This document shows positions 22,736-31,062 of a stretch of 64,000 bases of DNA, piece after piece; the stretch's first letter is position 1; each line of letters begins with the position of its first letter. The translations under genes and the position numbers were made by a program. This stretch comes from Elusimicrobium minutum Pei191. GTDB taxonomy: Bacteria; Elusimicrobiota; Elusimicrobia; Elusimicrobiales; Elusimicrobiaceae. The stretch lies in assembly GCF_000020145.1 (NCBI RefSeq), contig NC_010644.1, forward strand, positions 1,240,001 through 1,304,000, read 5' to 3'. The notes under the pieces were generated by a model. That model was not told the origin of the DNA. It searched no databases and saw only the letters and a program-made list of their open reading frames with translations.

Positions 22736-23884
22736 CTACCTCTCTGTTTTTACTGTTACAACACACTGGCACATAGCAGCGTTACCCGCGCCGATGTCGC
22801 CAAGTTTTTCATGGCTTTTGGATTTAAAGCTGATACTGTCAACCCCCATATTAAAAACTTTGCCAAGGCTTTCACGTATAGCCTGATAATGCGGTTTCAT
22901 TTTCGGTTCTTCCGTTATTATAACCGCGTCTATGTGAACGATTCTGGCGTTTTTTTCTTTTAATATTTCTATAACTTTTTTAGCTATATCAACACTGGAA
23001 ATGCCTTCTATTTTAGCATCGGTAGGCGGGTAATAAACACCAATTTCGCCGGCGCAAACCGCGCCCAAAGCCGCGTCGCACACAGCATGCAAAACAACGT
23101 CGCCGTCGCTGTGGCCCAAAAAGCCTTTTGTATGCGGTATTTCCAAACCGCCTATAAAAAGTTTACGCCCCTCAACAAGCCTGTGCAGATCAAAGCCAAT
23201 GCCTGTTCTGTAAATTGTTTCTTTATCTTCTTTAACTAAAGCTTCTGCCATAATTAAATCTTCCGGAGTTGTTATTTTAATATTTTTATAGTCGGACTCG
23301 ACAATATTTACTTTAACGCCCGTTTTTTCAACAAGCTGGGATTCATCCGTAGCGTTTAACTCTTTGCCGTATTTTTCTAAAGCGTTTTTTAAAACATCCG
23401 CCCTGTAGCTTTGCGGGGTTTGGGCGGCGTATAAAACTCCGCGGTCCAAGGTTTTACACACAACGCCGTTTGAACATTCTTTAATAGTGTCTTTAACGGG
23501 CACAGCTAAAACGCTGGCGCCTTTATCATAGGCTGTTTTAAGCGCTAAATCAACTTTTTCCGGGTTTACAAGCGGCCTGGCGCCGTCATGCACGGAAATG
23601 ACATCCGCGTTTTTATCAACCGCTTCAACACCGCTTATTACGGAACCTAATCTTGTCGCACCGGGCGCAACGGTTTTAATTTCGGGAAATATTTTTTTAA
23701 TTTCCGCCGCCGTTTCCGGCGCGGAAACAACAATAATTTCCGTAATATTTTTTACTTTTTTAAAAGCCTCAACCGTTCTTGCAAGCGCGGGTTTGCCGGC
23801 AATATCAAGCATCTGTTTAGGACGCCCCATTCTGGTGCCGCTGCCCCCCGCAACTATAATAGCCGAAACCTTAAAATCGTTCAT
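22736..23884 (-). CDS. ispDF: bifunctional IspD/IspF (MEP cytidylyltransferase / MECDP synthase)
   Basis: A fused enzyme of 382 residues catalysing two non-consecutive steps of the methylerythritol phosphate isoprenoid pathway. IspD domain (about 1-225): IIVAGGSGTRMGRPKQ nucleotide-binding start, SVHDGARPLV and AAQTPQSYR. IspF domain (about 228-382): GIGFDLHRLVEGRKLFIGG (zinc-binding Asp-x-His), GFLGHSDGDVVLHA and FKSKSHEKLGDIG. Its order in the string PIN-TRAM, ispDF, lipoprotein, cysS resembles the common yacL-ispD-ispF-cysS arrangement. Confidence 0.96.
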   Translation of the reverse strand: MNDFKVSAIIVAGGSGTRMGRPKQMLDIAGKPALARTVEAFKKVKNITEIIVVSAPETAAEIKKIFPEIKTVAPGATRLGSVISGVEAVDKNADVISVHDGARPLVNPEKVDLALKTAYDKGASVLAVPVKDTIKECSNGVVCKTLDRGVLYAAQTPQSYRADVLKNALEKYGKELNATDESQLVEKTGVKVNIVESDYKNIKITTPEDLIMAEALVKEDKETIYRTGIGFDLHRLVEGRKLFIGGLEIPHTKGFLGHSDGDVVLHAVCDAALGAVCAGEIGVYYPPTDAKIEGISSVDIAKKVIEILKEKNARIVHIDAVIITEEPKMKPHYQAIRESLGKVFNMGVDSISFKSKSHEKLGDIGAGNAAMCQCVVTVKTER

Positions 23885-27599: not shown

Positions 27600-28139
27600 T
27601 TATTTATTGGCCTTAGCGGCGGACTTCATTGCCTTTCGCTTTAAACTTCCGGCATCTTTTGTTTTTTTCTCCTTCAGGTTTTCCCAGGGCGTTTTTGTGT
27701 TTTTACCGGCCAAAATATCATCTACTTCTTTTGAAATAAGTTCTTTTTTATTTTTTTCCTGCTCATTAAGAGCTTCTGCCCACGATTTAAGCTTTTCCTG
27801 CTGCCTTTCTATTTGCAGGCGCTGGGCTTTTATTTTTTTATCGTGCTGCGCGGACATAAACTTATTAAGCTCGGCCTTAACAGCGGGTTTTTCTTTAGCA
27901 GAGGCGGTTTTATATTTTTCTTTTAAAGTTTCTATTTCTTTTTCCGCCTTATCTTTTTCTTTTCTGGATTGGGAAAAAGCGCCCATGTCAAAAGCGTCCG
28001 TAGGCGTTTTAATATCTTTGCCTGCTTCTTTGCAGGTTGTACAGTTTTCGGTTTTAGATTCTTCACAAACGCCGTCGCATGCGCAAAAAACAGGCAAAGC
28101 TAAAAACGTAAAAATAAAAACAGTTAAAAGTTTTTTCAT
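27600..28139 (-). CDS. exported coiled-coil protein of unknown function
   Basis: A 179-residue protein with a signal peptide (MKKLLTVFIFTFLALPVFCA). The mature start is cysteine-rich (CDGVCEESKTENCTTCKEA), followed by a long charged helical region (about 60-140, Lys/Glu/Gln rich, heptad-like) likely to form a coiled coil, and a basic tail. The cysteine after FCA could be lipidated, but the lipobox is poor. No family recognised. Starts 1 nt after the ComB-QueC stop, so it is probably the last gene of the rlmN-lipoprotein-queC string. Confidence 0.75.
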   Translation of the reverse strand: MKKLLTVFIFTFLALPVFCACDGVCEESKTENCTTCKEAGKDIKTPTDAFDMGAFSQSRKEKDKAEKEIETLKEKYKTASAKEKPAVKAELNKFMSAQHDKKIKAQRLQIERQQEKLKSWAEALNEQEKNKKELISKEVDDILAGKNTKTPWENLKEKKTKDAGSLKRKAMKSAAKANK

Positions 28140-28140
28140 A

Positions 28141-29595
28141 TTAATACTCCTCTCTTTCACCGGCGTCTTCAAAACCTTTGCGCCTTAATTTGCAAGATTC
28201 GCAAACTCCGCAAGGTTTTTCACCGCCGTTATAACAGGTCCAAGTCTGTTCCAAAGGAGCGCCAAGTTTGCGCCCCAATTTTACTATTTCGGCTTTATTA
28301 AGCTTTATAATAGGGGTTAAAATTTCAAATTTTTTACCAAGCCTGGTCCCCACTCTTACAGCTTCCGAAAGCGGTTTATAAAACTGCGGCGTACAGTCGG
28401 GATAGCCGGAATAATCAACCGCGTTAGGGCCTAAAACAACAGCTTCCGCACCGATACTGTCCGCCCATGAAGCGCCTAAAGAAACAAAAATCAAATTACG
28501 AGCCGGAACATATGTGGAAGGAATGCTTTTGCCTATTTGCTCCATAGGTGTAGCGGGTATTTCCGCGCCGCCTACCAAAGAAGTGGCCTCAGCAAGCCAA
28601 GGCAAATTAATTTCAATATGCTTGTGAGTAACGCCCGCCTGTTTGGCAAGACGTTGGGCTACCTCAATTTCCTTTAAATGTTTTTGCCCGTAAGCAACAC
28701 TTAAAGCATAACATTCATAACCTTCTTTTAACGCCCAATATAAGCAAACTGTTGAATCCAACCCGCCTGAAAAAAGAACAACGGCTTTCTTTTTAGAAGT
28801 TTTATTTTCTTCAACTTTAGCCGGTATTTCCCGTCTTTGAGTTATAGAAGGCATAACGGAAGAATCTATATTATTATTTACTGCTTTCATTCCCGATTCT
28901 TCTTCCCTTTTTAAAACTTTTTCTTTATTAAAAGGAGTACAGACAACCCCGTAACCGCCCATAATCTTTATAATCGGTATAACGGGAATGGAATTAACCG
29001 TAAGACAAAGCGCGGCGTCTTTAACAGCGGTTTTAGGGCCGTTTTTAATAAAATCCTCATACCTCGCGGTATTTTTTATTGTTTGGATATCCTGCTCGGT
29101 ATTTCCAAGGCCGGAAAACATTTGCATATAACTTTCCGCGCAGACGGCGTCCTCAATATCGCTGGAATGCCCGAACAGATTGGAAGGAACTATCAGAAGA
29201 TCTTCTTTTAAAGATTTTAAATAACTTGAAAGCGTGTAAATATTGCAATAACCGCCCATAAAAATTTCTTTAGCGTTTTCCAAAGACATAACCGCGGGAG
29301 TTCCAGCCGTAGTAACTATAGCACCCGGTTTTTTAGGGTTGCTTTTGCCTGCTAAAAAAGGCGAGTTGTCTTCTTTATTTACCCCTTCAATAATAAGTTC
29401 CGAAAAAAGTTCAACTTCGCTTCGCGTGTTTTTATAATGGGCCGCCAAATCTTTATCCCCGTAAACTCTTATATCCTCTTTCCCCCTGTTTACAAGAGCG
29501 CAAACGGTTGTGGAACTTCTTAAAACGTCTATAACAAGCGCGTTGCCTTCCCAATTTTCGCAGTCAAAAACTGAATTCGCGACTACAATATTCAT
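28141..29595 (-). CDS. queC: ComB (2-phosphosulfolactate phosphatase)-like domain fused to QueC (7-cyano-7-deazaguanine synthase)
   Basis: A single 484-residue reading frame with two enzyme domains. Residues about 1-225 look like the ComB family (NALVIDVLRSSTTVCALVNRG, GAIVTTAGTPAVMS, IVPSNLFGHSSDIEDAVCAE). After a polar linker (about 226-267), residues 268-484 are QueC: PP-loop LFSGGLDSTVCLYWAL, YGQKHLKEIEVA, and zinc cysteines C454, C462, C465 and C468. QueC makes preQ0 for queuosine. What the ComB part does here is unknown; coenzyme M or sulfolactate metabolism is not otherwise visible. Start overlaps the preceding lipoprotein gene by ATGA. Confidence 0.88.
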   Translation of the reverse strand: MNIVVANSVFDCENWEGNALVIDVLRSSTTVCALVNRGKEDIRVYGDKDLAAHYKNTRSEVELFSELIIEGVNKEDNSPFLAGKSNPKKPGAIVTTAGTPAVMSLENAKEIFMGGYCNIYTLSSYLKSLKEDLLIVPSNLFGHSSDIEDAVCAESYMQMFSGLGNTEQDIQTIKNTARYEDFIKNGPKTAVKDAALCLTVNSIPVIPIIKIMGGYGVVCTPFNKEKVLKREEESGMKAVNNNIDSSVMPSITQRREIPAKVEENKTSKKKAVVLFSGGLDSTVCLYWALKEGYECYALSVAYGQKHLKEIEVAQRLAKQAGVTHKHIEINLPWLAEATSLVGGAEIPATPMEQIGKSIPSTYVPARNLIFVSLGASWADSIGAEAVVLGPNAVDYSGYPDCTPQFYKPLSEAVRVGTRLGKKFEILTPIIKLNKAEIVKLGRKLGAPLEQTWTCYNGGEKPCGVCESCKLRRKGFEDAGEREEY

Positions 29596-30029
29596 TCTTG
29601 CAACACTCCCATAATTTTATATTCATCAATAGCTTGTTTATCCTGCTCGCTTAAATTATCAACATATTTAATGGCGTACCCCACAAGCACAACAGTTCCC
29701 TTTCCTTCTTCGGGCGACTGGCCTATATAAATCCCGTCGGCCCCTTTGTGCGCCGCATATTTTGTTAATGTGTGAAGAGCGTCTTTTAAATCATCTCTTT
29801 TTTGCACAACGCCTTTTATTCTGGCTACCCCAAGGTTTCCGTAAGGACGTTTAATTTCACTTTGGTCGGCGTAAATATCTATTTTGCCTTTATTAGGTTC
29901 AAACATAGGGCCTATTTGTATCCAGTCTGGCTCGCTTACAAAAATACCCATGCATCCCATTATAAAAAGAATAAGTATTAAAGTTATAATTTTCTTTAAA
30001 ACCAAAACGGAAATTAAAAATTTTTTCAT
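29592..30029 (-). CDS. small lipoprotein, function unknown
   Basis: A 145-residue protein. The N-terminus (MKKFLISVLVLKKIITLILI...) ends in a lipobox FIMGC around residue 26. The mature domain contains YGNLGVARIKGVVQKRDDLKDA and AAHKGADGIYIGQSP, reminiscent of small envelope proteins with a heavy-metal-binding/YbjQ-like or DUF4156-like fold, but I cannot assign it. Start at 30029 follows the rlmN stop by 1 nt; a longer start inside rlmN is rejected because it hides the signal peptide. Confidence 0.72.
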   Translation of the reverse strand: MKKFLISVLVLKKIITLILILFIMGCMGIFVSEPDWIQIGPMFEPNKGKIDIYADQSEIKRPYGNLGVARIKGVVQKRDDLKDALHTLTKYAAHKGADGIYIGQSPEEGKGTVVLVGYAIKYVDNLSEQDKQAIDEYKIMGVLQE

Positions 30030-30030
30030 T

Positions 30031-31062
30031 TTATTTCTCCTTACTTTCCTTAACCGCAAGCTGGCCGCAGGCGGCAAGAATGTCATTACCTAAACTTTTG
30101 CGTATTGTTACGCTTATGTGAAGGCCCTGCAATCCTTTGGCAAAAAGTTTAACCTGTTTTTCGGAAGTGGTTTTCCCCTTGCCCATATTACAGGCTATTA
30201 AATTAACGTGCAAAAGATAATTATCTTTTACGCCGCTTATCCATTTACCGAGCAGCCTGATATGTTCGGGCCTGTCATTAACGCCCTCAACTACCGTGTA
30301 TTCTATAAAAACCTGCCTGCCGGTCATGGCAATATATTCCGTTAAAGCTTTTTGAAGCGTTTCTAAATTAAACTTGCGGTTTAAAGGAACGATTTTATTT
30401 CTTTCATCATCATCCGCGCTGTGAAGCGAAAGCGCCAAATTAACCTGCGGCAAATCAACCGCCAGGTTGTGAAATTTATCCGCCACGCCGGAGGTGGAAA
30501 TTGAAATATGCCTCATGCCTATGCCAAGCCTGTCGGGGTTGGATATTTCTTTTACGGCTTTAACAGTGTTTAGATAGTTAAAAAGCGGCTCTCCCATGCC
30601 CATAAAAACAACATTGTTAATACGCTGGGCAAGTTTTTCCTGCTTAATATAACTTAACCAAAATAAAACCTGGTCAGAGATTTCCTCGTCCGTTAAATCA
30701 CGCTTAAATCTCATTTTACCGGTGGAGCAAAAACTGCATCCCACCGGACAGCCTACCTGCGTGGAAACGCACACTGTCCAAACATCACCCATGCGCATAA
30801 GCACGGTTTCTATTTTAAGGCCATCTTCTAATTTTAACAAGGCTTTTGCCGTGCGGTCTTTATCGGAAAATTGCATTTTTGCCGCGGTAAAAGAAAGAAT
30901 ATTAAAATTATCTTTTAATTTATTTTTTAAATCTGCGGGGAGAGCTACGGCCTTGTTCCAATCGGTAATACCGTTTTTGTAAACAGCGTCTTTAACCTGC
31001 GCTATACGATAAGCGGGAAATCCATTCTCTTTTATAAAGTCTTTTATCTTTTCAAAATTCAT
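30031..31062 (-). CDS. rlmN: 23S rRNA (adenine-2503-C2)-methyltransferase RlmN
   Basis: A radical SAM methyltransferase of 343 residues acting on A2503 of 23S rRNA and on tRNA A37. Signatures: CPVGCSFCSTGKMRFKRDLT (Cx3Cx2C), VVFMGMGEPLFNY, ISTSGVADKF, LALSLHSADDDERNKIVPLNR, and near the C-terminus VTIRKSLGNDILAACGQL, which holds the catalytic methyl-accepting cysteine region. Length is normal. TAAAAT lies 6 nt upstream of the ATG with no Shine-Dalgarno. Confidence 0.97.
   Translation of the reverse strand: MNFEKIKDFIKENGFPAYRIAQVKDAVYKNGITDWNKAVALPADLKNKLKDNFNILSFTAAKMQFSDKDRTAKALLKLEDGLKIETVLMRMGDVWTVCVSTQVGCPVGCSFCSTGKMRFKRDLTDEEISDQVLFWLSYIKQEKLAQRINNVVFMGMGEPLFNYLNTVKAVKEISNPDRLGIGMRHISISTSGVADKFHNLAVDLPQVNLALSLHSADDDERNKIVPLNRKFNLETLQKALTEYIAMTGRQVFIEYTVVEGVNDRPEHIRLLGKWISGVKDNYLLHVNLIACNMGKGKTTSEKQVKLFAKGLQGLHISVTIRKSLGNDILAACGQLAVKESKEK

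What the first reader, a model, noticed from the sequence alone, without database searches (positions are those of the whole stretch)
28141..29595. Fusion of a ComB-like phosphatase domain to QueC
One uninterrupted frame holds a ComB (2-phosphosulfolactate phosphatase) domain, a ~40-residue polar linker and a complete QueC domain with SGGLDS and four zinc cysteines. ComB acts in coenzyme M/sulfolactate metabolism and has no known link to queuosine. The fusion suggests the ComB fold has another role, perhaps dephosphorylating a precursor or intermediate connected to preQ0.
Basis: partly seen in the sequence, partly recalled or inferred. Interest (0 to 1): 0.6.

Follow-up and report, generated by a model that had tools for sequence, protein, structure and literature searches.

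The report
Phosphatase-like domain fused to queuosine enzyme
A tRNA-modification enzyme (QueC) in a gut bacterium carries an extra phosphatase-like domain (ComB fold) that began as the neighbouring gene and was then joined to it, a link conserved across a bacterial order that points to an undescribed, helpful but non-essential partner of the queuosine pathway.

Summary
Window 28141-29595 (-) is one 484-aa frame: a ComB-family domain (Pfam 2-ph_phosp; fold Z about 25 to solved ComB structures), a disordered linker of about 50 residues, and a complete canonical QueC. The architecture is conserved. Of 199 genomes sampled in the phylum, 42 have a ComB-family gene, all in one order: fused to queC in 24, immediately upstream in 16, 7 kb away in 1, unlinked in 1. 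Relatives with short, Met-free linkers show that separate translation is not the general explanation. ComA is absent from 81/81 genomes of the order, so phosphosulfolactate is very unlikely to be the substrate. The domain keeps the family's conserved core (D23, R26, E66, NSP, N118, ED149) but changes several loops and fails the ComB equivalog cut-off. It is not needed for preQ0: many relatives keep queC and the rest of the pathway without it, and in one fused clade the core erodes and ComB was lost repeatedly. Best reading: an accessory, non-obligatory phosphatase-like partner of QueC, formed by fusion of a coupled gene pair; substrate unknown. No paper found describes it. It is a new domain architecture of two known families, of moderate interest.

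The parts
28141..29595 (-). Fusion gene, 484 aa: ComB-like domain, linker, QueC
   Evidence: ORF and domain matches; homologous fusions
28942..29595 (-). ComB-like domain, residues 1-218
   Evidence: Pfam PF04029; fold Z 24-26 to 2z0j, 1vr0, 2yyv
28792..28941 (-). Disordered linker, residues 219-268, with two Met (M236 and one in VMPSI)
   Evidence: pLDDT mostly below 50 at 228-265; composition and length vary between relatives
28141..28791 (-). QueC domain, residues 269-484 and stop codon
   Evidence: PF06508 and TIGR00364; motifs of the QueC signature
28753..28770 (-). SGGLDS ATP-binding loop, residues 276-281
   Evidence: Sequence
28192..28236 (-). Zinc site C454-x7-C462-xx-C465-xx-C468
   Evidence: Sequence
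29592..30029 (-). Conserved small lipoprotein-like gene immediately upstream; its TGA overlaps the fusion's ATG (ATGA)
   Evidence: Cluster c1 upstream of queC in 28 loci, with or without ComB; sequence
30031..31062 (-). rlmN-like gene (cluster c2), first gene of the run in this family
   Evidence: Sequence; gene order in relatives
27600..28139 (-). Small exported-protein-like gene (cluster c15) starting 1-2 nt after the fusion's stop
   Evidence: Sequence; cluster c15 downstream in relatives

Best explanation
A two-domain protein made by fusion of two adjacent, translationally coupled genes. The C-terminal domain is an ordinary preQ0 synthase (QueC). The N-terminal domain is a divergent ComB-family domain, presumably a Mg-dependent phosphatase, that works as an accessory enzyme beside QueC on a small phosphorylated compound other than phosphosulfolactate (for example clean-up of a by-product, or of phosphorylated pterin or 7-deazaguanine compounds). 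It is useful under some conditions but is not a step of preQ0 synthesis. Shown by sequence: the fusion, its conservation, its likely origin from a neighbouring gene, the retained conserved residues, the absence of ComA, the dispensability. Inferred: catalytic activity, and that its substrate has to do with the queuosine pathway.
For: 24 fused and 16 adjacent of 42 genomes with the family. The comB-queC pair is kept while the flanks differ between families f1 and f2; several separate pairs overlap by 4 to about 29 nt (coordinates). Residues invariant in 19 ComB proteins of other phyla (D23, R26, E66, NSP, N118, E148, D149, D193) are kept here and in the unfused proteins where aligned. dN/dS of comB 0.03-0.19, so it is under purifying selection. 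ComA absent from 81/81 genomes of the order. QueC half canonical.
Against: No activity data. Adjacency can be inherited without function. In most of genus g3 (15 of 19 fused proteins) conserved-core positions are changed, and ComB was lost several times while queC stayed. Several loops of ordinary ComB are changed. 'Core' is defined by conservation only; ligand contacts could not be mapped.
Confidence: 0.45

Rival explanations
1. The ComB-like domain is a non-catalytic module that stabilises, places or regulates QueC, or senses a metabolite.
For: Core positions are altered in 15 of 19 fused g3 proteins, yet dN/dS stays below 0.2. Fused g3 proteins carry long linkers with a recurring helix-like motif.
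Against: Core intact in this genome, its congeners, a g3 subclade and the unfused proteins.
Confidence: 0.25
2. Linkage without functional link: comB is an independent housekeeping phosphatase that happened to sit upstream of queC, and read-through fusion was neutral.
For: comB and queC often overlap, so fusion needs only a small mutation. Losses leave queC intact. In other phyla ComB sits between gcvT and ftsK, not beside queC. One genome has comB unlinked and one has it 7 kb away.
Against: The pair outlives rearrangement of both flanks, and fused forms persist through a genus and a half.
Confidence: 0.2
3. One reading: the domain removes a phosphate from a precursor or intermediate on the path to preQ0, as a needed step.
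For: Fusion and operon with queC, and in f2 also queE.
Against: The known pathway has no such step. QueD-type PTPS, QueF, TGT, QueA and mostly QueH are present regardless of ComB, and 27 of 71 QueC proteins compared have no ComB.
Confidence: 0.06
4. The two domains are translated separately from an internal start near M236.
For: M236 lies in the linker of this genome's protein with purine-rich sequence upstream.
Against: Fused relatives with short linkers lack any Met there.
Confidence: 0.03
5. A true ComB acting in coenzyme M or sulfolactate synthesis.
For: Family name only.
Against: ComA absent from 81/81 genomes while both expected controls were found. The domain scores 33 bits against the 175-bit cut-off of the ComB equivalog model.
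Confidence: 0.01

Closest known systems
QueC, 7-cyano-7-deazaguanine synthase (TIGR00364; cluster 1 of PMC13329287)
   Same: Whole QueC domain, all catalytic motifs, score over the equivalog cut-off.
   Different: Carries an N-terminal ComB-like domain; first zinc spacing is 7 instead of 8 residues.
ComB family PF04029 (2-phosphosulfolactate phosphatase; structures 1vr0, 2yyv, 2z0j)
   Same: Fold (Z 24-26) and conserved core residues.
   Different: Loops around GER, TNG, CAG and the HG motif are changed; well below equivalog cut-offs; no ComA; fused or next to queC.
QatC (QatABCD defence) and Cap9 (CBASS)
   Same: QueC-fold proteins with a dedicated protein partner; matched by structure (9y02, 9nto).
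   Different: Here the QueC domain is the ordinary biosynthetic type in a housekeeping gene run; no defence gene was seen beside it.

Membership tests
QueC (preQ0 synthase) | Score over the curated equivalog cut-off (TIGR00364) | tested here: met
   216 bits against 150.3
QueC (preQ0 synthase) | SGGxDS, YxQxHxxE, VPxRN, YPDC, Tyr after first zinc Cys | tested here: met
   SGGLDS, YGQKHLKE, VPARN, YPDC, C454-Y455 (motif list from PMC13329287)
QueC (preQ0 synthase) | Zinc motif C(x)8CxxCxxC | tested here: inconclusive
   Four Cys present, but the first spacing is 7; the same in all 20 relatives aligned
QueC (preQ0 synthase) | Converts CDG to preQ0 | not testable with these tools
   Needs an enzyme or complementation assay
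ComB fold family PF04029 | Score over Pfam's gathering cut-off | tested here: met
   67.4 bits against 26.4
ComB fold family PF04029 | ComB fold | tested here: met
   Z 26.2, 25.1 and 23.7 to 2z0j, 1vr0, 2yyv over 205-210 residues
ComB fold family PF04029 | Residues invariant across the family | tested here: inconclusive
   D23, R26, E66, N77-S78-P79, N118, E148-D149, D193 kept; G65, N97, C137 and G139 positions changed
ComB, 2-phosphosulfolactate phosphatase (the enzyme) | Score over equivalog cut-offs (TIGR00298, PRK00886 models) | tested here: not met
   33 bits against 175 for TIGR00298; best 38 bits against 330
ComB, 2-phosphosulfolactate phosphatase (the enzyme) | Phosphosulfolactate synthase (ComA) in the genome | tested here: not met
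   0 of 81 genomes of the order; controls B. subtilis and M. jannaschii positive
ComB, 2-phosphosulfolactate phosphatase (the enzyme) | Hydrolysis of 2-phosphosulfolactate | not testable with these tools
   Needs an enzyme assay

The most novel reading that the evidence does not exclude
The ComB-like domain is a new auxiliary enzyme or regulator of 7-deazaguanine synthesis or salvage in Elusimicrobiales, coupled to QueC first by operon and then by fusion, and the first ComB-family protein with a role in tRNA modification.
Probability: 0.35. Interest if true: 0.65.

Novelty: new variant of a known kind. Interest (0 to 1): 0.47.

Why it matters
Fusion and stable adjacency are circumstantial evidence of a shared role. 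ComB-family proteins also occur in bacteria far from coenzyme M users, with no assigned role that I found. An order-wide comB-queC pair with a cultivated member gives a concrete place to find what this fold does outside coenzyme M synthesis. The order also shows a gene pair passing through coupling, fusion, decay and loss.

Tried and rejected
Coenzyme M route: rejected, no ComA. Replacement of a missing pathway enzyme: rejected, no queuosine gene tested is missing in line with ComB presence. Internal start as a general explanation: rejected. Riboswitch near the operon: none at gathering score. Promoters or terminators between the domains: no convincing signal; promoter-like matches were fewer than in shuffles. 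ComB beside queC in other phyla: none in 19 loci from Ignavibacteria, Gemmatimonadota, Zixibacteria, Calditrichaeota and others, but that scan used two peptide patterns and is not exhaustive. Literature: no held paper contains both ComB's full name and QueC; the 2026 QueC survey PMC13329287 mentions no phosphatase, sulfolactate or Elusimicrobia. The ComB structure paper (doi 10.1002/prot.20978) is not held, so metal and substrate contacts could not be mapped. A broad 16-sequence ComB alignment had no stretch conserved enough for a collection scan.

Full report
What is there. The window is G000:C1:1240001-1304000 of a single-contig genome of 1,643,562 bases. From memory that length is that of Elusimicrobium minutum Pei191; named relatives found by the collection scan are Elusimicrobium and other Elusimicrobiales genomes. 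The ORF 28141-29595 (-) encodes 484 aa without a stop. Pfam finds 2-ph_phosp at residues 16-174 (E 1.3e-18) and QueC at 270-478 (E 3.9e-73). AlphaFold2 with 20 homologues gives a ComB domain with pLDDT mostly above 90, a linker mostly below 50 at 228-265, and a QueC domain. The ComB domain aligns to 2z0j, 1vr0 and 2yyv at Z 24-26, the QueC domain to 3bl5 at Z 21.

The QueC half is canonical. It passes TIGR00364 and holds the motifs of the published 2026 signature: SGGxDS, YxQxHxxE, VPxRN, YPDC and the Tyr after the first zinc Cys (PMC13329287; sequence). Only the first zinc spacing is 7 instead of 8. Other pathway genes are in the genome: folE, queE and queD in one run at about 690-692 kb (folE named from its sequence), queF, TGT and queA side by side, queH.

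The fusion is conserved and its origin is visible. In 199 sampled genomes of the phylum PF04029 occurs in 42, all in the window's order. In 24 it is in one frame with QueC, in 16 it is a separate gene immediately upstream on the same strand, in one (G176) it is 7.3 kb away, and in one (G133) it is unlinked. In family f2 the usual order is small lipoprotein - comB - queC - queE, and several comB and queC genes overlap by 4 to about 29 nt. In the window's family the order is rlmN - small lipoprotein - comB.queC. The flanks differ and the core stays. A QueC tree puts the fused proteins in the E. minutum genus and in genus g3, with several losses of ComB in and around g3. Whether the fusion arose once or twice is not settled.

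One translation product. Conservation is clear. Congener L093 (25-residue linker), L121 (about 7 residues) and three g3 proteins (158-209 residues) have no Met in the linker; non-ATG starts were not excluded. In the window itself M236 could still be an extra start.

What the ComB half can be. ComA is absent from all 81 genomes of the order searched, while both controls expected to have it were found, so phosphosulfolactate is very unlikely. Compared with 19 ComB proteins of other phyla, the Elusimicrobiales proteins keep D23, R26, E66, N77-S78-P79, N118, E148-D149 and D193 but change the loops around GER, TNG, CAG and HG. These residues are 'core' by conservation only. The unfused proteins (where aligned), the E. 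minutum genus and one g3 subclade have this core intact. In the larger g3 clade 15 of 19 fused proteins have changes at core positions, some conservative (E66D, N77D) and some not (R26C or G, E66P, E148K); the counts depend on the alignment. dN/dS of comB is 0.08-0.14 in unfused pairs, close to queC, and 0.11-0.19 against 0.03-0.04 for queC in most g3 pairs. The domain is therefore maintained, but in g3 under weaker constraint than its partner.

Not needed for queuosine. Of the 71 QueC proteins compared, 27 have no ComB. PTPS/QueD is found in 60/60 genomes of the family, QueF in 60/60, TGT in 56/60, QueA in 59/60 and QueH in 50/60, without a pattern that follows ComB.

Interpretation. Fusion and stable adjacency support a shared role; dispensability argues against a pathway step. 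I favour an accessory phosphatase-like partner of QueC (0.45) over a non-catalytic module (0.25), no functional link (0.2), a needed pathway step (0.06), separate translation (0.03) and coenzyme M (0.01). The substrate remains open; no computation here can name it.

Novelty. No held paper contains both ComB's full name and QueC, and the 2026 QueC survey does not mention such a fusion. Subscription literature and annotation databases were not searched. It is a new domain architecture of two known families.

Noticed in passing
Linkers of fused proteins in genus g3, e.g. L094, L096-L104, L155, L161: Long (about 120-350 aa) low-complexity linkers often hold a recurring helix-like motif (such as GFFSDIVRSVKEEK) followed about 35-40 residues later by DPxDxLL. 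Possibly a docking or membrane-contact element; absent in the window's own short linker.
   Followed up: partly
L128-L146 (ComB loci of other phyla): In Ignavibacteria, Gemmatimonadota, Zixibacteria, Calditrichaeota and relatives the ComB gene often lies directly after gcvT and, in many, before an ftsK-like gene. No link to queC there; the gcvT link is itself unexplained.
   Followed up: no
window 29592-30029 (-): Small lipoprotein-like gene directly upstream of queC in 28 loci, with or without ComB; no Pfam match. Its link to queC is broader than ComB's.
   Followed up: partly
L074:7459-7821 (genome about 839.5 kb): Second PTPS-family gene next to a folK-like gene, with Glu where QueD has its catalytic Cys by eye, as in PTPS-III of folate synthesis.
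   Followed up: no
L079:7622-8293 (G133): The one ComB-family gene of the phylum sample not linked to queC; it keeps most core residues and may mark an older or transferred form.
   Followed up: no
window 22736-23884 (-): One frame that reads by eye as an IspD-IspF fusion, a known architecture.
   Followed up: no
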